A DNA stretch of 64,000 nucleotides from Vibrio penaeicida (GTDB lineage: Bacteria > Pseudomonadota > Gammaproteobacteria > Enterobacterales > Vibrionaceae), in NCBI RefSeq assembly GCF_019977755.1, contig NZ_AP025144.1:1240001-1304000 (forward strand). Direction: 5' to 3'. The translations under genes and the position numbers were made by a program. Positions 50,232 to 60,062 of this stretch are shown one piece after another (positions within the stretch are counted from its first letter, which is position 1; each line of letters begins with the position of its first letter). The notes under the pieces are model-generated. The model made no database searches, had not been told where the DNA came from, and was given only the letters and a program-made list of their open reading frames with translations.

Positions 50232-50458
50232 TATATTCATATACCTCTCATAAAAAGACCTTTCAGACGAATTAGTCAAACTCACTATTATTTCGTAGAA
50301 AACTAGTTGTAAATTTACAACAAAATATAAAATACAGAATATAAATCCATTTAAAAAGTGATTAAATAGCGAATAAATCTGGTGTTTAATGTTTTATCTA
50401 GATTTACCTGTTGCTTAACAATTCTTTAACTAGTTTTATATTCTTTGTGAGGAAGGAA

Positions 50459-50908
50459 ATGAGTTCTAAAGCCCCTTTTTGTATTCGCCACGCAGCAGCG
50501 GATACATTTGCTATGGTGGTATTCAGCTTTGTTGTAGGAATGCTGATAGAGATTTTTGTATCAGGTATGTCCTTTGAACAGTCATTGCAGTCGAGAACTC
50601 TATCTATACCCGTGAACATCGCCATTGCATGGCCTTATGGGGTATTCCGAGATTGGGTTCTTAACCAAGGTGGAAGAATCCACGGTGGCGAACTGACAAA
50701 GCGTATTTCCGACGTTATTGCTTATGTATTGTTTCAATCACCTGTTTATGCCGCCATTCTATGGTTTGTAGGCGCATCTTCTGATCAGATTGTGACAGCC
50801 GTTGCGAGTAACGCAGTTGTTTCATGTGGTTTAGGTGTACTTTACGGATATTTCCTAGATAACTGCCGAAAATTATTCCGCGTTCCTGCTTATATTCAAC
50901 AGGTCTAA
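50459..50908 (+). CDS. alaE: L-alanine exporter AlaE
   Basis: AlaE (149 residues, the E. coli length) exports L-alanine at the inner membrane. The start ATG 50459 ([21 protein letters not shown]) has GAGGAAGGAA upstream; a longer frame to 50411 is not needed. Diagnostic segments are [48 protein letters not shown] and [20 protein letters not shown], with about four TM helices. Confidence 0.93.
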
Positions 50909-50994
50909 AGCTAACCAATCTGTTGGTAAAGTGAGTGTTTTAGCTAAAATCTGAGCGAACAGACATGAAATGATGTTTTTTTTCAGATAATCAC

Positions 50995-51023
50995 TTGACC
51001 GACAAACACATAAACATTAAATT
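50995..51023 (+). promoter_or_regulatory. tRNA-Ser promoter
   Basis: TTGACC (50995-51000), a 17-base spacer, TAAATT (51018-51023) and a GC-rich discriminator GCGCCCC, the usual mark of stringently controlled stable-RNA promoters. Confidence 0.75.
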
Positions 51024-51059
51024 AGCGCCCCGTTGAGACGCAAAGTTCAACAACAATTC

Positions 51060-51147
51060 GGTGAGTTGTCCGAGTGGCTGAAGGAGCACGCCTGGAAAGT
51101 GTGTATACGGCAACGTATCGAGAGTTCGAATCTCTCACTCACCGCCA
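51060..51147 (+). tRNA. tRNA-Ser (anticodon GGA)
   Basis: The acceptor arms GGTGAGT (51060-51066) and ACTCACC (51137-51143) pair, followed by G and an encoded CCA. The anticodon GGA is at 51094-51096. The long variable arm (TATACGGCAACGTA) is typical of class II tRNA-Ser, and the T arm AGAGTTCGAATCTCT is complete. It marks the boundary of the accessory block. Confidence 0.97.
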
Positions 51148-51158
51148 CATTCTTGAAA

Positions 51159-51188
51159 AGAGACGCCCTAGGGCGTCTTTTTTTTTGC
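51159..51188 (+). terminator. tRNA-Ser terminator
   Basis: AGACGCCC-TA-GGGCGTCT (51161-51178) is followed by nine T residues. Confidence 0.93.
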
Positions 51189-51343
51189 TCATTATATTTC
51201 TAAATAAAAACCTTAATGCCCAAATATGTCATAGTCATCTCGTCATTTTGTCTTGATGTATTCAGTCATCATTGGAGAGCCCAAGTGATTGACAAATATC
51301 TCTATAAACTATACCGATAACTAAATAAAATCTAAGTGAAACA

Positions 51344-52471
51344 ATGACGATAGAGTTGTATCTAGAACGTTTTCAAAACTTAAAAATGAACAGCGCGGGA
51401 GGCAAGAAAAGTCCTCACAAGGTGTGTATGCTCCTAGCCATCATAGACCTAGTACAAGCTGGGCATATTTCCACCAACCAGATCTACTTAAACCAAGTTC
51501 TTAAAGATAGATTCGCTCACCATTTTGATAACTTGGCTCAGAATAAAGATAAGAATACGCCAGAGAACCCGTTTTTTCATTTAAGAACTGAATGCTTTTG
51601 GCATCTTTCATATTGCTCGGGTTGTGATAGAAAAAGCACCAAACGATATTCTGCAAAATCAGTTGAATATGCCTATATTGATGATGAGCTATTCGATTAT
51701 ATGAAGAGCTACATTGTCGCTAATGAGCTGAAAGAAGCCTTGGTGTCAAACTTGTCTGATCTGGCTGGTTTATATTACCAATGGCTGTTGGATATTGGTA
51801 AGTCGGAGAAAACCGCAAGCAACTATCTCGGTGCGATTAAAGGCTCTATCTCATATTGGTTAATGGATGTAGGGGAACTTGACCAGCCTCTAACGGACAT
51901 TAATTCTTATCGTAAGTTTATAAGCTACGAAGATAAGGCAAGAAAGCTAGAGCTATTCCAAATTCGAGACAAAAAAGGTAAAGGTATGTATAGCGCAGCT
52001 TTGTCTCATTATCATAAGTTCTTAGCTGACGTGTCTCAAATAGATGTAAATGCTGATATTAAACAGGTTATGACCGATAAAACGCTATCGGATACTGAGA
52101 AAAGTATACTCGTGAAGACGAGAATGGGGCAAGGAGGCTTTAGAACTAAGCTGATTAAAATGTGGGGATGCTGTGCTGTAACAGGATACCGTAATACTCA
52201 GTTGCTATTAGCTTCACACATTAAACCGTGGCGGGACTCTAGTAATGAAGAACGTTTGGACAAATTCAATGGTCTATTATTACTAGCTAATTTAGACAAA
52301 GCATTCGATCTCGGTTTTATCTCTTTTAGCGACCAAGGAAAAGTAATGATTTCTAGCCAATTAGAGTCACCAAAAGTGATCGGTTTAGATGAGAGTATGT
52401 CCTTCAATATTGCTCTAGAACATAAGCGATATCTCGCTTATCACCGAGCTGAGCTGTTTAAAGGTCTTTGA
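51344..52471 (+). CDS. HNH endonuclease, restriction-like
   Basis: The 375-residue protein has three parts. Residues 1-120 resemble the N-terminal head domain of ScoMcrA-like HNH nucleases (KSPHKVCMLLAIIDLVQAGHI). Residues about 140-240 look like the SAM-like core-binding fold of tyrosine recombinases (YYQWLLDIGKSEKTASNYLG, MYSAALSHYHKFLADV). Residues 260-375 form an HNH_2 nuclease (CCAVTGYRNTQLLLASHIKPW at about 276-296, NGLLLLANLDKAFDLGFISF). Such nucleases are known or suspected modification-dependent restriction enzymes. A TTGACA box lies at 51289-51294. It is the first gene after tRNA-Ser. The HNH call is firm; the N-terminal assignments are by eye. Confidence 0.75.
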   Translation: MTIELYLERFQNLKMNSAGGKKSPHKVCMLLAIIDLVQAGHISTNQIYLNQVLKDRFAHHFDNLAQNKDKNTPENPFFHLRTECFWHLSYCSGCDRKSTKRYSAKSVEYAYIDDELFDYMKSYIVANELKEALVSNLSDLAGLYYQWLLDIGKSEKTASNYLGAIKGSISYWLMDVGELDQPLTDINSYRKFISYEDKARKLELFQIRDKKGKGMYSAALSHYHKFLADVSQIDVNADIKQVMTDKTLSDTEKSILVKTRMGQGGFRTKLIKMWGCCAVTGYRNTQLLLASHIKPWRDSSNEERLDKFNGLLLLANLDKAFDLGFISFSDQGKVMISSQLESPKVIGLDESMSFNIALEHKRYLAYHRAELFKGL

Positions 52472-52656
52472 TTTCAATTTACTGATAGTAATGAAAATTA
52501 AGGTATCTCTTAAAGAGTAATTAAGTTTAATCGGAGATGTAATTAACAGTTTGGTAAGTGAGTAGTTGACGTGATGCCCATCTAAAAAATATGGTTAGAT
52601 TATTCGTATTGATGAGTATTCTCATTGTTGAGTAAAAATTCACGTTGGTAAGCTAG
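52472..52656 (+). promoter_or_regulatory. Probable promoter region of the helicase operon
   Basis: TTGACG (52566-52571), an 18-base spacer and TATGGT (52590-52595) could start transcription of the helicase pair. A small inverted repeat TGAG-TATT-CTCA lies downstream, near 52610-52625. The Shine-Dalgarno sequence before ATG 52657 is poor. Confidence 0.35.
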
Positions 52657-53995
52657 ATGGAACTCACCTCGGTATTAAAAGAACTACAAGCTTTTGTGTA
52701 TGCAGAACATGACGCTGGTATAGAAAATCTTCTAGAAATTTGGAAGAAACCTTTAAAAGAAAAACTATTAAAAGGTGAAACTCAACTAATAGAGTCAGTG
52801 AGGTATTCCGGAACTAATCACCTTGAAGTCGTATTAGGTGATAATGAATCACGCCTTAGGGAAGGCGACATGATTTGTTTGCATCTTGGTGATCCTAGTA
52901 ATCATAAGGTTTTTGACCAAGTAACTATTGAGGCCGAAAGCGATGGAGAGTGGCTACTGAAAGTCAAAGTCGATAAAAGTTTACTTCCACAACTAAGTGA
53001 AGGTTGTTATGCCGATCCTACAGGCATGGATCTAAGGCCATTTTATGAAAAGTCTTTAGTTGATATCGCTACATCTAAAGTCGGCAGAGACGTACTGCTT
53101 CCTATGCTTTCCGGACATTTAAATATGGAAGCGATTTATGACGAAGACTTTGATGAAGCTGCTGATTATGCAGAATCTCGTGGGCTGAATGAAAAACAGA
53201 GTGAAGCGGTTGGGCTTGGTGTCGCATCTAAATACTTAGCGTGTATTCAGGGACCTCCTGGAACTGGTAAAACAAAAGTTATTAGTATTATCGCTAAGCT
53301 TCTTGTAGAGGCCGGACAAAGAGTTCTCATGACTTCTCATACCCACATGGCGATCAATAATGCGCTCAACAAAATTGTGGAGGAAAGGGTCCCTGTTGCG
53401 AAAATTTGTGCGAGTGGTGGTAAGAAATCATTGAGTGATAAGGTGAAGCATTTTGAATACGCATCAAAATGGGAAGATATACCTGATACTGGATATATCA
53501 TAGGCGCCACACCTTTTGCCACCTGTAGTGAACGGCTTGAAAGCTTTACATTTGATACCATCATTTTTGACGAAGCCAGCCAAATCACAGTCCCTTTGGC
53601 GTTAATGGCAATGAGAAAAGGATGCAGATTTGTATTTGTTGGGGATCATAAGCAGCTTCCTCCTGTGATACTTTCTCAATCCGTTCTAGAAGATAGTTCC
53701 GCTTTCTCCAAAATGATTCTTGGCAATGAAAAGGTTTCTGTGTTGCTGAGCCAAACATATCGCATGTCCCCAGCCTTAACCCAATGGCCTAGCAATTGTT
53801 ACTACAAGGGTAATCTGGAATCGAAAAGGCCGCCAGCGCTATCATTGTTTTCTCTACCGAAAAAAACTCACAAGTATTCCGATATTCTCTCTAGTGATCT
53901 ACCTTCTGTGTTTATCAAGACCCCAGGGGTCAATGATCCGCCCCAACAGTTTTGGACACCAAGTTAAGTGAGTACAATCACTAACGAGGTGAACA

Positions 53996-54283
53996 ATGAC
54001 AACTAACAAAAAAACTAGAATTAAACATTCCCCTGAATTTAAGGCAGAAGCTTTGAAGCTATCAGAGAAAGTGGGAGTTGCTGCGGCAGCGAGGCAGCTC
54101 GGGTTGCATGAATCCCAGATCTACGGTTGGCGTAAGGCAATTAAAAAAGACACCAGTACCAGTCAGCGTGAAAGAGATCTCGCTGCCGAAGTCGCCAAGC
54201 TCAAAAGGCAATTGGCTGAGCAAGCTGAAGAGCTAGATATCGTAAAAAAGGCCGCCACCTACTTCGCGAAAAATCTAAAGTAG
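53996..54283 (+). CDS. IS3-family transposase OrfA
   Basis: OrfA (95 residues) has a helix-turn-helix HTH_Tnp_1 domain (HSPEFKAEALKLSEKVGVAAAARQLGLHESQIYGWRK) and a C-terminal leucine-zipper-like helix (LAAEVAKLKRQLAEQAEELDIVKKA). It binds the IS ends. The 3' end contains an A-rich stretch (CGAAAAATC) where a -1 ribosomal shift could produce an OrfAB fusion. Confidence 0.93.
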   Translation: MTTNKKTRIKHSPEFKAEALKLSEKVGVAAAARQLGLHESQIYGWRKAIKKDTSTSQRERDLAAEVAKLKRQLAEQAEELDIVKKAATYFAKNLK

Positions 54284-54297
54284 ATTGCTATGAATTT

Positions 54298-55149
54298 ATG
54301 CTAGAACACCTTCTGTGTTTCAATGTGGTCCGCATGGCTAAGGTGTTCGAAGTTTCACGAAGTGGGTTCTATTACTGGATTAAGCATCGCCACAAGTACA
54401 TCCAGCGTGAGGCAATACGCCAAAAGCTTGATGAAAAAGTCAAAAAAGCTTTTGACAATAGTAAGGGGCGTGATGGCTCAAGGCGCATCCAGAAAGAGCT
54501 AGCTGAGAATGGGGATAGCCGTAATGTTAAAACCATTGCCGCCAGTATGAAGCGTCAGGATTTAACGCCGAAAGCGGCACGCAAGTTTAAATGTACGACG
54601 GATAGCAAGCATAAGATGCCCGTAGCGCCGAACTTGCTAGCTCAAGACTTTAACGCAACGGCTCCGAATCAAAAATGGGCGGGAGATATCACGTATCTTG
54701 CCACGAGCGAAGGCTGGTTGTATCTGGCTGTCATCATCGACCTTTACTCACGACAAGTGATCGGTTGGTCAATGGATACGAGGATGACGGCAACTCTGGT
54801 CTGCGATGCATTATCAATGGCTCTGTTCCGTCGAGGGTTCCCTGAGCATGTTACTGTCCATAGTGATCGAGGTAGCCAGTATTGCTCAAAAGACTATAGG
54901 GACATAATAAGTGCTTATAACCTAAAACAAAGTATGAGTAGAAAAGGAAACTGTTGGGATAATGCGTGTGTTGAGAGCTTCTTCCATTCTATGAAAGTCG
55001 AGGCGATCCAATACGAACCGATCATGACAAGAAATGAGATGCGCCAAACGGTCTTCGAGTACATTGAGGTTGATTATAATCGGATGAGAAGGCACAGTGC
55101 TCTTGGGTATCTAAGCCCAGTTAACTTTGAACAGCAAAATGTCGCTTAA
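54298..55149 (+). CDS. IS3-family transposase OrfB (DDE integrase domain)
   Basis: OrfB (283 residues as an independent frame) is in the -1 phase relative to orfA; the phase is open back into the orfA 3' end, so it is probably made as an OrfAB frameshift product. The DDE triad appears as GDITYL, VHSDRGSQYCS and NACVESFFHSMKVE. The N-terminal HTH_21 segment (GRDGSRRIQKELAENG) is present. The stop codon lies within the right inverted repeat. Confidence 0.93.
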   Translation: MLEHLLCFNVVRMAKVFEVSRSGFYYWIKHRHKYIQREAIRQKLDEKVKKAFDNSKGRDGSRRIQKELAENGDSRNVKTIAASMKRQDLTPKAARKFKCTTDSKHKMPVAPNLLAQDFNATAPNQKWAGDITYLATSEGWLYLAVIIDLYSRQVIGWSMDTRMTATLVCDALSMALFRRGFPEHVTVHSDRGSQYCSKDYRDIISAYNLKQSMSRKGNCWDNACVESFFHSMKVEAIQYEPIMTRNEMRQTVFEYIEVDYNRMRRHSALGYLSPVNFEQQNVA

Positions 55150-55635
55150 TGAAGTGTCCAGTCTTGCTGGAGCAGATCACAATGCCCGAAGTCAAAATAG
55201 AATAGAAGCGGAGTTAGTAGCTGACTTGATAACTGCGGCTGTTGAAGCGGGGCTATCGGCTGAAGAAGTTGGCGTTGTTACACCGTTTCGTGGTCATGCC
55301 AGAATATTAAAATCCTGCTTGCAGGATAAGCTAGGAATATTTGGATCAAAATTAGTGGTAACGGATACCGTAGAAAGGATGCAGGGTCAGGAGCGAGAAA
55401 TGATTATAGTTTCATTCTGCTCCTCAGACCCGCAATACATTAGCGCTATTGCTGAATTCTTTTTTCAAGCGGAACGTCTCAATGTTGCCATTACTAGACC
55501 TCAGACTAAGTTGGTTATTGTGGGCCCCGAAATACCAGAAGGCATGCTGCAACAGGTGGATGATCTTAGGGTTCGGAAAAATATCGAAGACTATAAATCT
55601 CTGGTTCGTCACTGCTATAAGGCGGAAGTAGATTA

Positions 55636-57606
55636 ATGGCACATATAAATATGCTTACAGGCTTAGACCGCAAGTATCGACGACATTTCAAAAAGGTATT
55701 CAATAAACTCAATGACGAATTTTTTATACGCGAGTCATTATTAGATGCTTTGCAAGTCGCCCCTTGCATTATTGAGGGACCTTGCAATAGTTGGGTTTTT
55801 GTTGGTGTTCATTCAGAGAAGCTAGATAGTGTTAGTCTTTCTAAATTGTTGAAGTTTAATGACTCGATGTTGAAGTTGGGTTTAAAGCCTGTTCAGTATC
55901 TTGCTGTCGTCGATAATATGACTTCGGGGGAAGGTAGTACGTTACAAGTCGATGATTCTCTATCTGATTATGTACAAATAGTCGAGAACAAGACGTTTAT
56001 TGAGTATGGTGAACAGCGAATACATGCCGCATTAACCGAGTTCACAATCGAGGAGCATACTCGAATAAAACGCACGTTTTTTCCGGAGTCTGTTATTCCC
56101 GCACAATGCAGTACTCGTCGAGGAAAAATATCCGTAGACAATACCGCTAGGTTGCTTCCATTTTTTCTAGATTATGATCAAGAACTGGCTACAAGACTGG
56201 ACATGATTGAGTCTGTCGATTCTGAAGAAGAAGGTCAGGAAGACACTTCTGTAAGGTTGATAAATGGGGTGGCTGGGAGTGGGAAGACTCTGATTTTAAT
56301 TAATCGTGCAGCACTATATTGCAAAAAATACCCTGAAAAAAAGGTGCTTCTTGCGATACACAATAAACCAGTGACGGAAGATATTAAATACAGGTTTGAA
56401 ATGTGGCTTAAAGGTAAACCAGATAACCTTGAAATTGCGACCTTTCACTCATTTGCATTAAAACAGTACAGCAAAAGCTATCAGCGTGTTACTCCAGTAT
56501 TTGGCGATGCGAATCTAAAAGAAGAAAAGCAGACCGTTTTAAGTGATAAAAATGAAGCGTACACGAAACTGTCGTTAACGGATGAGCAGATTTGGTCCGA
56601 ACTAGAGTACATCAATGACTACTTAATTAAAGACAAAGAAGAGTATTTGGAATTTGATCGACAAGGACGTGGATTTTCGTTGCAAAAAAGTCAACGAGAA
56701 CATATTTGGCTGCTATATGCTGATTTTTGTGCTCAGTTGTCGTCGGTTAAGAAATACTTACCGAGTTTATACATTAAGGAAGTCGCGCTATCAGATAAAC
56801 CTCTTGAACAGTTTGATCACATACTGCTTGATGAGGCTCAATTCTTCGCGCCATCTTGGTTACAGCTGATTAAACGTTCACTGACTCCTGGAGGGCAATT
56901 ATTTATTTGTGCTGATCCTAACCAAGGCTTCTTAAAAAACCGTTTAAGTTGGAAGAGCGTAGGTCTAAATGTTCGAGGGCGCACCAAGCGTTTGAATCAT
57001 TCTTACCGAACGACTTATGAAATAATGGTCGCCGCAAACGCTCTGCTAGATGGACTCGAAGGGAGCCCAGAAGATTACGTAAAGCCTGATTATGAAAAAA
57101 TGGTAAGAGGCTACAAACCCCAAATCATATATTCCCGAAATGCTCAAGATGAGAAAAAAAGATTCCTCAATGAGTTGGTAGCACTGGTGAAATCTGAAAA
57201 GGTTTCTCTTCATCAGGTTATGGTATTGTGTAGCCCGGAATACTACCCAAAAAACCTTAAGCAAGAGATTGAGCAACGTCTTGGCTTGAATACGGTCGTT
57301 AACTACAATAATTCCAAAGAGTTGGCATCTAACGTAGGCAGTAAAATTAGACTTCTTAATATCAATAGTTGTACGGGGATGGAGTCAGGTACGGTGTTTG
57401 TTCTTGGTTCTGGTCATATAATTAACCAGCCTAAGAACCTAGAACTGAATGACTCGGAAAGAGAAGAAGTATTACAGGAATCAATGCGTAAACTCTATGT
57501 AGCAATGACTAGAGCAGGACAGAAGTTAGTTGTTTTCAGTACCGAAGAGTTTCCAGCTAGCGTTGAAAAGCAAGTTGATATCACGGGGGCAGTTACCCTC
57601 AGTTAG
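55636..57606 (+). CDS. UvrD/Rep-like SF1 helicase, second gene of the pair
   Basis: The 656-residue protein has Walker A GVAGSGKT (211-218), DEAQFF (399-404), a LNHSYRTTYEI segment, CTGMESGTVFVLG and motif VI YVAMTRAGQKLVVF near 621. The first 200 residues are not a usual UvrD N-terminus and I do not recognise them; they may be a nuclease-like or partner-binding domain. Its ATG overlaps the stop codon of the upstream helicase gene (TAATG, 55634-55638), so the two were translationally coupled before the IS arrived. Expression now would depend on the IS or an internal promoter. It is not UvrD, Rep or RecB, and no OLD-family nuclease partner (as in Gabija) is next to it. Confidence 0.85.
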   Translation: MAHINMLTGLDRKYRRHFKKVFNKLNDEFFIRESLLDALQVAPCIIEGPCNSWVFVGVHSEKLDSVSLSKLLKFNDSMLKLGLKPVQYLAVVDNMTSGEGSTLQVDDSLSDYVQIVENKTFIEYGEQRIHAALTEFTIEEHTRIKRTFFPESVIPAQCSTRRGKISVDNTARLLPFFLDYDQELATRLDMIESVDSEEEGQEDTSVRLINGVAGSGKTLILINRAALYCKKYPEKKVLLAIHNKPVTEDIKYRFEMWLKGKPDNLEIATFHSFALKQYSKSYQRVTPVFGDANLKEEKQTVLSDKNEAYTKLSLTDEQIWSELEYINDYLIKDKEEYLEFDRQGRGFSLQKSQREHIWLLYADFCAQLSSVKKYLPSLYIKEVALSDKPLEQFDHILLDEAQFFAPSWLQLIKRSLTPGGQLFICADPNQGFLKNRLSWKSVGLNVRGRTKRLNHSYRTTYEIMVAANALLDGLEGSPEDYVKPDYEKMVRGYKPQIIYSRNAQDEKKRFLNELVALVKSEKVSLHQVMVLCSPEYYPKNLKQEIEQRLGLNTVVNYNNSKELASNVGSKIRLLNINSCTGMESGTVFVLGSGHIINQPKNLELNDSEREEVLQESMRKLYVAMTRAGQKLVVFSTEEFPASVEKQVDITGAVTLS

Positions 57607-57791
57607 TTACTTTAATCTCGCGCAAACAGCCATTTGAACATACTACTGAGTGATCTAACATTGCGAAGCAAAATTTTGCGGTTGATGTGGGTGGGGAGTT
57701 GACAGCTTTTACAAGTAGTGATTAAAGGGGGACTCTAAGAGGAGATTACTTTCATGAAGGTGCTGCATATAACAGTAATTCAATTTAACGT
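57607..57791. other. Intergenic stretch after the helicase pair
   Basis: I see no terminator and no long gene. A short palindrome GCAAAATTTTGC lies near 57667-57678. A 13-codon frame (57754-57795) with a fair ribosome-binding site (GAGGAGA) ends at a TGA that overlaps the ATG at 57792 and may be a leader or a remnant. Confidence 0.3.
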
Positions 57792-57941
57792 ATGAAAGCC
57801 GACGGAGGTTTAATTAACAGGTATCAATATACACATGACCTCATCTTAAGGAAATTGTCTTATGATTACCAAAACTATAAACATGATTCGTCAATTTATA
57901 TCAGTCAAGGGTTTGATAGTATATTAGGTGGAGAGAAATAG
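57792..57941 (+). CDS. Possible small protein (49 residues)
   Basis: The frame begins MKADGGLINRYQYTHD and ends directly before the ATG of the next gene (TAG then ATG). Its start overlaps the stop codon of the preceding 13-codon frame (ATGA). The segment GGLINRYQYTHD vaguely recalls the tail of Rhs-type proteins, but the match is too short to trust. It has no ribosome-binding site of its own, and the tight junctions are the only support. It may be a leader, a remnant or chance. Confidence 0.25.
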   Translation: MKADGGLINRYQYTHDLILRKLSYDYQNYKHDSSIYISQGFDSILGGEK

Positions 57942-58673
57942 ATGGCAGATAAGATTAACAAGATTCTCTTTACTACATTGGTTATTTTTGTGTTAATCCC
58001 ATGGCTAATAAGCTTATATAATCACCTTTCTTTGTCTAATTATTACTTAATGAAGATTGGTAACCTTACGGAGCGGAGTGAATATAAGTTAATTAAAGGT
58101 AGGTTGCCTGATTATGTTGAGGAAAAAGGGGAAATTGGCGCTTTTTATGAGTGTCTAAAAACCTACAAGCCAATATCTAAATGGAAAATTTCTCAACCAA
58201 ACTCACGAACTATAGATATAGAGATCGGAGGTATTAACTTTTTGTTTTCAAGTTCGAGTATTACATCTGTTTTTAGCATAGAGACTGATGAGCTTATTAC
58301 ATCTGGCTATGCGTTAGAATGCGACTTAAATCTTTTGGGAAAAAATTCTATTAGAAGTGATTATGATATTCCAAAGTTTAACCCATATGACAAGTATGAA
58401 ATTTTATTAAGTTCTGGTCAGGTTTTTGAGAAAAAGAAAGAAATAAATTTATCATACCTCAATCATTGCTTAAGAACTCGAGTTAAATCAAGTGATGAAT
58501 ATATTGAGACTGGTGTTTTAAAAATTAAAATAAATTCTACAGGATACACTTATATAGTTCACCTTAGTTTTAATGATGATAAAATTAAAAGTTATATCAT
58601 AGAAGAATACATTAATAAACGAGACCTTCTATCTAGGAGTGGGGTAATATTTGTAGATTGTGAAATTAATTAA
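57942..58673 (+). CDS. AT-rich orphan protein with one N-terminal TM segment
   Basis: I do not recognise this 243-residue protein. A hydrophobic helix (ILFTTLVIFVLIPWLISLY, about residues 8-27) is followed by a soluble, probably periplasmic part rich in Ser, Ile, Lys and Tyr. Three cysteines occur in the soluble part (FYECLKT, ALECDLN, NHCLRTR) and one near the C-terminus (FVDCEIN), so disulfides are possible. GGTGGAG lies 10 bases before the ATG. Base composition is clearly more AT-rich than the core genes, which suggests transfer and makes it a likely H-NS target. It could be an immunity or envelope protein; nothing proves it. Confidence 0.7.
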   Translation: MADKINKILFTTLVIFVLIPWLISLYNHLSLSNYYLMKIGNLTERSEYKLIKGRLPDYVEEKGEIGAFYECLKTYKPISKWKISQPNSRTIDIEIGGINFLFSSSSITSVFSIETDELITSGYALECDLNLLGKNSIRSDYDIPKFNPYDKYEILLSSGQVFEKKKEINLSYLNHCLRTRVKSSDEYIETGVLKIKINSTGYTYIVHLSFNDDKIKSYIIEEYINKRDLLSRSGVIFVDCEIN

Positions 58674-58761
58674 GATAATTGGGGCAGTCGCTTTAAGAAA
58701 ACATGAATTCTATCTAGTCAAGCGTACGGAAAAAATAGTTAAAGGTTAGTGGAGTTGCTTA

Positions 58762-59682
58762 TTAGCTCGATTGTTCCCCAAACTTCCTAAAATACCTAGG
58801 CAGCATAGTTTCATTGCCTAGAAGCCCACCTTGGTGGATGTAGAGTAACGTCCCGTGCTGTTCCTTTTCGTAATCTTGTATTAAACAGCGCCACATTAAT
58901 GGGTCGTAAAGCAAATCAAATTCCACATTGGTTTGCTGCTTTAGCTTTTTCCACATATCAAAATCGGCTTGGTAGAGTTTGCCAAAGTGGTGCTTTTTTC
59001 CTGTATTCAAAATGTATGGAAACTGCTCTTCGTTTAGCGATTGCCATTGTTGCATTAGGTATTCGTCGCCACCGACACACGCGCAAGTGACTACTCGAAT
59101 ATTGTGTTTTTCTAGGTGCTTATTCAGGTAAAGAGAGGTAGTCCCCGTGCCTGAAGGGAGGGCTACGGTAAGGGCAGCAATGTTTGCTTCTTTTTTCCAA
59201 TCCAATATTTCATTTGCCAGCTGTCTTACGCCATATTCTGCCAATTCACTTCGGCCGCCTTCTGGAACAAAAAGGCAACGGTTGTCGGGCTTTCTGATCT
59301 CTTTTATGTAGCGCTCGCTATTTAGTGCATTGTCTCCGTCGCGTTCCAATTGGCTTACATCAATAATCTTTGCCCCTAAATCCAGCGCTGCGCGGTAGTT
59401 ACCTTTGGGGTTTTCTAATACATAAGACGGGATATGATCCACATAAAACTCGAAGCTCCACCCTTTTAAGTGGGCGAGTGCGGCTAACGAATACAAAGAG
59501 TTGGCTTGAACAGAACCGTGCCCAATAACCGTATTAACTTCTGGGTATTCGGTGTTCAGCAGCTGCATAAATTTTCTGGCTTTGTTGCCGCTAAATTGAG
59601 GATGAAGGAGTTCATCTCTCTTTAGGTAAAAAGTAATGTCATCAACGCAGTGTTGAGTAATCGGGCTGGCTTGAAGTTTCAT
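58762..59682 (-). CDS. PLP-dependent D-cysteine desulfhydrase / ACC deaminase family protein
   Basis: The 306-residue enzyme belongs to fold-type II PLP proteins. The PLP lysine is in QFSGNKARKFMQL near residue 35, with VIGHGSVQANSLYSLAALAHL as the substrate/PLP loop and LPSGTGTTSLYLNKHL as the phosphate-binding loop. I start it at CAT 59680-59682 (MKLQASPITQHCVDDITFYLKRDELLHP), the usual N-terminus; upstream in-frame ATGs reach 59820. Members are annotated ACC deaminase but many act on D-cysteine or related amino acids. Substrate is not decided here. Confidence 0.82.
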   Translation of the reverse strand: MKLQASPITQHCVDDITFYLKRDELLHPQFSGNKARKFMQLLNTEYPEVNTVIGHGSVQANSLYSLAALAHLKGWSFEFYVDHIPSYVLENPKGNYRAALDLGAKIIDVSQLERDGDNALNSERYIKEIRKPDNRCLFVPEGGRSELAEYGVRQLANEILDWKKEANIAALTVALPSGTGTTSLYLNKHLEKHNIRVVTCACVGGDEYLMQQWQSLNEEQFPYILNTGKKHHFGKLYQADFDMWKKLKQQTNVEFDLLYDPLMWRCLIQDYEKEQHGTLLYIHQGGLLGNETMLPRYFRKFGEQSS

Positions 59683-60062
59683 AGCGATATGGGTGTTGCG
59701 ATAAAGCTGTAGTCTAACAGAATCTTGTTTCTCATTGAGAGTGCCATTGCAAAGTGATCCTCGCAACTTCATACGACTTGGGTATAATGCAGCCTTCGTG
59801 CATTTTCTTTTGTGCGACACAGACTTTTACCCAAAGTTAGATGCTTGATTTCATTACCGCCCAAACGCCCAGTCTGCTATTGACAGGTTTTCATGTCGAT
59901 AGGTTTGCTTGCTATTCGTTTAGCTTGCAGCCAGCAAGATTAGGTGGGCGCATTTTCATAGAGCATCAGGGGTATTGGAATTGAAATGAATGACATAAAG
60001 AATGAACTTACTTGATTTTGATATATCTCACGTAAGGGATTTGAATTGATAGAGGTAGAGAA
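59683..60062. other. Intergenic region between the PLP enzyme and the GT39 gene
   Basis: This 380-bp divergent gap must contain both promoters. An in-frame extension of the PLP gene reaches 59820 but looks unconserved. I see no RNA gene, repeat or clear promoter; GAGGTAGAGAA just before 60063 is the likely ribosome-binding site. Confidence 0.4.

What the first reader, a model, noticed from the sequence alone, without database searches (positions are those of the whole stretch)
52657..57606. Overlapping two-helicase operon that does not fit a defence system I can name
A DNA2/NAM7-like SF1 helicase (576 residues when repaired) and a UvrD-like helicase with an unrecognised 200-residue N-terminus are coupled by a TAATG overlap. 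They sit in an AT-richer block next to an HNH nuclease and a tRNA gene, the usual setting of defence cargo. No OLD nuclease (Gabija) or other named partner is present. The pair may be an undescribed two-helicase nucleic-acid defence module, here broken by an IS.
Basis: partly seen in the sequence, partly recalled or inferred. Interest (0 to 1): 0.72.

Follow-up and report, generated by a model that had tools for sequence, protein, structure and literature searches.

The report
Mobile two-helicase operon, IS-broken here
Two helicase genes that travel together as a unit in scattered bacteria, often beside known anti-phage genes in Vibrio, look like an undescribed defence module, and in this genome a jumping element has interrupted the first gene.

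Summary
A DNA2/UPF1-like SF1B helicase gene (H1), split by a 1,246-bp IS3-family element (53934-55179, 3-bp duplication CAA), overlaps a UvrD-like helicase gene (H2, 55636-57606) by one base. The pair is a real unit: H1 lies upstream of H2 on the same strand in 77 of 79 genome loci, and in 227 genomes of the genus each gene occurs in the same 16. It is accessory: 16/227 in the genus, 1/369 (itself) in a class sample, 10/121 and 5/199 in two other groups. It sits near different tRNA genes and on plasmids. In eight Vibrio genomes 76 nearby proteins match 48 PADLOC families, 95 control proteins one. In 96 selected flank proteins, mostly of Betaproteobacteria and Pseudomonas, only two families matched. 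H2's N-terminus is predicted to have a PD-(D/E)XK nuclease fold whose E-x-K site is missing in 54 of 54 sequences. Best reading: a two-motor, nuclease-less module against mobile DNA, perhaps RecBCD-like. No PADLOC, NCBIfam or Pfam model names it; nine literature searches found no description. Activity is untested.

The parts
51060..51147 (+). tRNA-Ser (GGA); the pair starts 1.5 kb downstream here, and 0.4, 2.4 and 6.4 kb downstream of the same tRNA in three other Vibrio loci
   Evidence: ARAGORN (L114, L007, L010/L115); alaE upstream in each
52657..53933 (+). H1, 5' part: stalk and barrel domain, Walker A, Walker B and the start of the second RecA-like domain of a DNA2/UPF1-like SF1B helicase
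   Evidence: Pfam AAA_11; 86% identical to residues 1-427 of an intact 576-aa relative; fold model of that relative
53931..53933 (.). left copy of the 3-bp target duplication CAA
53934..55179 (+). IS3-family insertion (HTH_Tnp_1 orfA 53996-54283, rve orfB 54298-55149) interrupting H1; 17 full-length near-identical copies in the genome, this one included
55180..55182 (.). right copy of the 3-bp target duplication CAA
55180..55636 (+). H1, 3' part: rest of the AAA_12 domain, stop overlapping the H2 start
   Evidence: Pfam AAA_12 5.7e-22; 83% identical to residues 425-575 of the intact relative
55636..57606 (+). H2, UvrD-like SF1A helicase, 656 aa, motor motifs intact
55636..56166 (+). H2 N-terminal domain: predicted PD-(D/E)XK nuclease fold without the catalytic E-x-K
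   Evidence: AlphaFold2 pLDDT 87, pTM 0.80; Foldseek and VIA-align matches; residue counts

Best explanation
H1-H2 is a self-contained, horizontally transferred two-motor module whose job is most likely defence against phages or other mobile DNA. H1 is a DNA2/UPF1-like motor (by family expected to move 5'->3', recalled) and H2 a UvrD/PcrA-like motor (expected 3'->5', recalled) whose N-terminal PD-(D/E)XK-type domain has lost its catalytic residues and would serve to bind DNA or the partner. The two would form one complex that loads on DNA ends, forks or gaps of the invader and drives along both strands, unwinding or stripping them so that replication fails or host nucleases finish the work; this resembles RecBCD in motor layout but has no nuclease of its own. 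In this genome H1 is interrupted by an IS, so the module is probably inactive. Shown by computation: the near-obligate pairing, intact motor motifs, patchy distribution and varied sites, defence neighbourhood in Vibrio, predicted fold and missing site. Inferred: polarity, complex formation, DNA as substrate, defence.
For: Pairing: 77 of 79 genome loci (76, L057), gap at most 211 bases in 76 of the 77; 16 of 16 carriers among 227 genus genomes; Mantel r 0.96 between H1 and H2 distances in 51 loci with full-length ORFs. No third gene recurs: the next most frequent gene cluster is in 7 loci. Both proteins keep invariant motor residues such as Walker A. Patchy distribution, varied sites, four Vibrio plasmid records with both genes. 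Defence neighbours: Gabija and Septu (L003), Septu (L009), type I RM (L006, L007, L013), type IV REases (L008, L010-L012); 48 PADLOC families at E<=1e-60 among 76 proteins near the pair against 1 family among 95 control proteins of the same 8 genomes. Closest solved structures: DNA2 for H1 by sequence and by fold, PcrA/UvrD for H2 by sequence.
Confidence: 0.5

Rival explanations
1. The pair is an accessory DNA-repair or fork-clearing module carried by islands and plasmids, helping mobile elements or stressed hosts to process DNA ends, with no defence role.
For: Nearest structures are repair helicases: DNA2 and PcrA/UvrD. Flanks in Pseudomonas and Betaproteobacteria are not defence-rich.
Against: Rare and patchy even within a genus (16 of 227) and associated with defence genes in Vibrio.
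Confidence: 0.2
2. The module acts on RNA: H1 works like UPF1/CnuH on phage transcripts or R-loops and H2 assists.
For: H1 matches UPF1, IGHMBP2 and SEN1 nearly as well as DNA2. [quoted passage not shown]
Against: H2 is closest to DNA helicases and its N-domain resembles DNA endonucleases. The first structural matches of H1 are DNA2.
Confidence: 0.15
3. The N-terminal domain of H2 still cuts, with unusual catalytic residues, so the pair is a helicase-nuclease of the Gabija/Hachiman style.
For: The predicted fold is that of an endonuclease, and the first acidic residue is kept in 40 of 54 sequences. The 20 rows with lysine at column 57 are all Chloroflexi loci.
Against: No sequence has D/E at column 57 or K at column 59 (0 of 54 each). 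Twelve of the 15 gammaproteobacterial rows outside Pseudomonas, the window's included, lack D at column 43 too.
Confidence: 0.1

Closest known systems
Gabija (GajA OLD nuclease + GajB UvrD-like helicase)
   Same: Two-gene operon with a UvrD-like helicase in defence islands; H2 matches GajB models (best 4.7e-14, residues 202-430 in the best stretch).
   Different: Partner is an SF1B helicase and not an OLD/TOPRIM nuclease; H2 has a nuclease-fold N-domain without its catalytic site.
RecBCD/AddAB
   Same: Two SF1 motors, one UvrD-like and one SF1B, plus a nuclease-fold domain without catalysis (compare RecC, recalled). The H1 profile matches RecD at 2.3e-6.
   Different: No active nuclease, no RecC-like subunit, H1 is DNA2/UPF1-like rather than RecD, accessory and not core.
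Hhe / ProA (DUF4011 SF1 helicases)
   Same: Distant SF1B helicase core. In Qipengyuania plasmid L005 an H2-like gene (22% identity) directly precedes an Hhe/ProA-like gene.
   Different: Intact H1 is 574-583 aa in most relatives and lacks the rest of those 1,797-1,903-position models; scores far below the NCBIfam cut-offs.
Mokosh (MkoA, MkoC)
   Same: SF1B helicase domain of the H1 5' piece matches MkoA (1.8e-33).
   Different: No kinase, RNase H or PLD domain (Mokosh features recalled) in the pair; partner is a UvrD-like helicase.
NERD+UvrD proteins (PADLOC C3a187)
   Same: By its name a NERD nuclease domain fused to UvrD; H2 matches at 6.6e-28.
   Different: The best of two matched stretches is 380-636, in the helicase (the other is not printed); the E-x-K site is absent.
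CoCoNuT CnuH (UPF1-like)
   Same: UPF1-like SF1 helicase with stalk and barrel in a defence operon (PMC11090510, passages).
   Different: No McrB/McrC-type gene among the ORFs scanned here; partner is UvrD-like.

Membership tests
Gabija | GajA, an OLD-family ATPase/TOPRIM nuclease, in the same operon | tested here: not met
   Pfam scan of the nine ORFs of 50411-59820 finds none. In L003 a complete Gabija is a separate neighbour of the pair.
Gabija | GajB-type UvrD-like helicase | tested here: inconclusive
   H2 matches GajB models at best 4.7e-14, against 1.5e-266 for the GajB in L003.
RecBCD-like bipolar helicase | one SF1A and one SF1B motor encoded together | tested here: met
   By family assignment and adjacency
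RecBCD-like bipolar helicase | active nuclease domain | tested here: not met
   E-x-K absent in 54 of 54 aligned N-domains; no other nuclease domain in either protein
RecBCD-like bipolar helicase | stable complex with motors of opposite polarity | not testable with these tools
   needs purified proteins
PD-(D/E)XK nuclease fold (H2 N-domain) | alpha-beta-beta-beta-alpha-beta core | tested here: met
PD-(D/E)XK nuclease fold (H2 N-domain) | catalytic D ... (D/E)xK | tested here: not met
   D at column 43 in 40 of 54; D/E at column 57 in 0 and K at column 59 in 0 of 54
Mokosh | kinase, RNase H or PLD domain in the system (recalled) | tested here: not met
   Pfam scan of H1 pieces and H2
Hhe / ProA | score above the NCBIfam cut-off | tested here: not met
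   An intact H1 relative (L002) scores 44.5 and 72.6 bits against cut-offs 2000 and 1500
anti-phage defence system | reduces phage plating when expressed | not testable with these tools
   bench test needed
anti-phage defence system | repeated location in defence islands | tested here: met
   In Vibrio (control 88); not seen in 96 selected flank proteins, mostly of Pseudomonas and Betaproteobacteria; Anaerolineae not tested

The most novel reading that the evidence does not exclude
H1-H2 founds a defence class in which two SF1 motors of opposite polarity, anchored by a dead nuclease domain, stop invading DNA by force alone: a RecBCD-like machine stripped of its nuclease and turned from repair to immunity.
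Probability: 0.2. Interest if true: 0.85.

Novelty: new variant of a known kind. Interest (0 to 1): 0.62.

Why it matters
If it defends, it is an immune module with two motors and no recognisable active nuclease or toxin, which would make directly testable whether translocation or unwinding alone can stop a phage. It is compact (about 3.7 kb), recurs from Vibrio to Chloroflexi, and has intact copies in harmless bacteria, so the test is simple. It would also extend a possible theme of UvrD-like proteins encoded beside UPF1/DNA2-like helicases in defence loci.

Tried and rejected
Core or housekeeping genes: rejected (16 of 227 in the genus; 10 of 121 and 5 of 199 in two other groups). HNH gene as third component: rejected; a full-length 69% identical HNH lies at the same tRNA-Ser site without the pair in L108, and none was found in the pair loci L007-L010, L114 and L115. 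ORF 57942-58673 as component: not supported; the protein search returned only one 100% identical entry (P0121). A conserved third gene: no cluster in more than 7 of the loci. Phage carriage: two phage records match 37% of H2 at 26% identity and none covers 80%; one 80-residue match in viral contigs, by a search limited to two short patterns. Exact repeats of the tRNA 3' end marking the island's far edge: none found. Absence of a family from the VIA-align list is not used as evidence.

Rows dropped and limits: alignment A2 holds 63 of 120 flank proteins and A3 96 of 151, chosen by eye, so and one search are not unbiased counts. The formal comparison is (all called ORFs of 180-1300 aa in 8 loci; 76 near, 95 control). 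Its control stretches were arbitrary, mostly on the same contigs, and it counts PADLOC families, several of which can fit one protein. In one search only 25 of 48 families are printed, 25 of 442, 25 of 112. A4 holds 53 of the 72 locus N-domains listed plus the window; A5 holds 35 H1 proteins; one search used 51 loci. ORFs were called from the longest start, which inflates overlaps, and the caller missed genes in GC-rich loci, so adjacency was rechecked by tblastn. There L057 was a miss because of a second H2-like match and is counted; H1 matches are partial in L006, L018, L027, L039, L054 and L083; gaps are longer in L042 (211 bases) and L060 (1,404). tRNA genes: of ten pair-bearing Vibrio loci examined (window; L006-L008, L010-L013, L017, L114), seven have a tRNA or tmRNA gene in the stretch, three (L006, L011, L012) none; none in three Pseudomonas loci either (L036, L038, L080).

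Full report
What is there. The island lies between alaE/tRNA-Ser(GGA) (51060-51147) and a pyridoxal-enzyme-like gene on the other strand at 58762-59820 (named by eye; no Pfam family reached its cut-off). It holds an HNH gene, H1, H2 and an orphan ORF. H1 is interrupted by an IS3-family element, 53934-55179, with imperfect ends and a CAA duplication. The same element has 17 full-length near-identical copies in this genome, this one included, so the interruption is probably recent. H1 pieces carry AAA_11/AAA_12; H2 carries UvrD and UvrD_C. The reading frames overlap as TAATG.

Is the pair real? In 79 genome loci found with an H2 profile, H1 lies upstream on the same strand in 77 (76, L057), at most 211 bases away in 76 of them and 1,404 in L060. 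The two exceptions are L082, a partial distant match at a contig end, and L084, a 25% identical Vagococcus protein. In 51 loci with full-length ORFs the spacing as called is -47 to +36 bases, and H1 and H2 distances correlate at r 0.96 (0 of 2000 permutations as high). In the 227 held genomes of the genus, H2 occurs in 16 and H1 in the same 16, at E <= 1e-60. In the plasmid collection the four records with full-length H1 are the four Vibrio records with full-length H2.

Is it mobile? A class sample of 369 genomes had only the window's own. The family of Bellilinea (L062) had 10 of 121 and the genus of Pseudomonas fluorescens FW300-N2E3 (L080) 5 of 199, the query genome included in each. Four Vibrio loci (window, L007, L009/L114, L010/L115) have the pair 0.4 to 6.4 kb downstream of the same tRNA-Ser with alaE; two (L013, L017) have it within 0.6 kb of a tRNA-Val; L008 has it 3 kb from the tmRNA gene; L006, L011 and L012 show no tRNA in the stretch held. 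Eight genomes fetched at the tRNA-Ser site lack the pair in those 12-14 kb, one of them (L108) holding the HNH gene; one of the eight (G150) carries the pair elsewhere. Among 96 selected flank proteins of L025-L052 and L080 four are phage-type integrases.

Is it with defence genes? L003 has Gabija (GajA 4e-217, GajB 2e-266) and Septu; L009 Septu; L006 and L013 type I restriction, with L007 in the same gene cluster; L008 and L010-L012 type IV restriction enzymes; L014 and L016 type I subunits. Of twelve Vibrio loci (plasmids L002-L004; genome contigs L006-L013 and L017), nine (L003, L006-L013) have such a match by these calls; L002, L004 (only a partial type IV match, 2e-22) and L017 (only a weak mad2 match, 3.6e-16) do not. 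In the formal comparison, 76 proteins near the pair in eight Vibrio genomes matched 48 PADLOC families at E<=1e-60, and 95 proteins from arbitrary stretches of the same eight genomes matched one, a regulator-type model. Against this, 96 selected flank proteins, mostly from Betaproteobacteria and Pseudomonas, matched two. Anaerolineae flanks were not scanned.

How it most likely works. Two motors of families known for opposite directions (recalled), nearly always encoded together, with a nuclease-fold domain that lacks its catalytic site, resemble the motor part of RecBCD. I propose a complex that loads on ends, forks or gaps of incoming DNA and unwinds or strips it. Polarity and substrate come from the families, not from data here. 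In this genome the module is probably silent.

What is known. PADLOC-DB 2.0.0, NCBIfam 20.0, Pfam and PHROGs match helicase domains but name no such pair. Nine literature searches of an open-licence library, seen as listings and starts of abstracts, showed no such system; passages of PMC12458937 and PMC11090510 were read. [quoted passage not shown] the passages seen describe no pairing of these two kinds of helicase. Subscription papers and supplements were not searched, so a description elsewhere is possible.

Noticed in passing
51344-52471: HNH gene whose match to the phosphorothioated-DNA restriction endonuclease model NF045808 (61 bits, cut-off 180) is best over residues 8-104, with a long stretch before the HNH_2 domain at 277-328. 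A 69% identical relative sits at the same tRNA-Ser site in L108.
   Followed up: partly
57942-58673: AT-rich ORF of 243 aa; the protein search found only one 100% identical entry, and no Pfam, PADLOC or NCBIfam match was found (PHROGs gave only weak ones).
   Followed up: partly
53934-55179 and the whole genome G000: The IS3-family element has 17 full-length near-identical copies plus diverged and partial ones on contigs C1 and C2, suggesting a recent burst. A look-alike of its transposase (by eye) lies downstream of the pair in L002.
   Followed up: partly
L005: 7773-15529: Qipengyuania plasmid: an H2-like UvrD gene (22% identity) overlaps an Hhe/ProA-like DUF4011 gene, with a RecB-like nuclease gene upstream; possibly a sister two-helicase arrangement.
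   Followed up: partly
L057 near 5343; G595:C6:14589-15875: Second, more divergent H2-like genes in Chloroflexi that carry the pair.
   Followed up: no
tRNA-Ser(GGA)/alaE site, L106-L115: What follows this tRNA differs among the ten genomes fetched as far as ten window proteins were looked for (pair, HNH or neither), a likely integration hotspot in the genus.
   Followed up: partly
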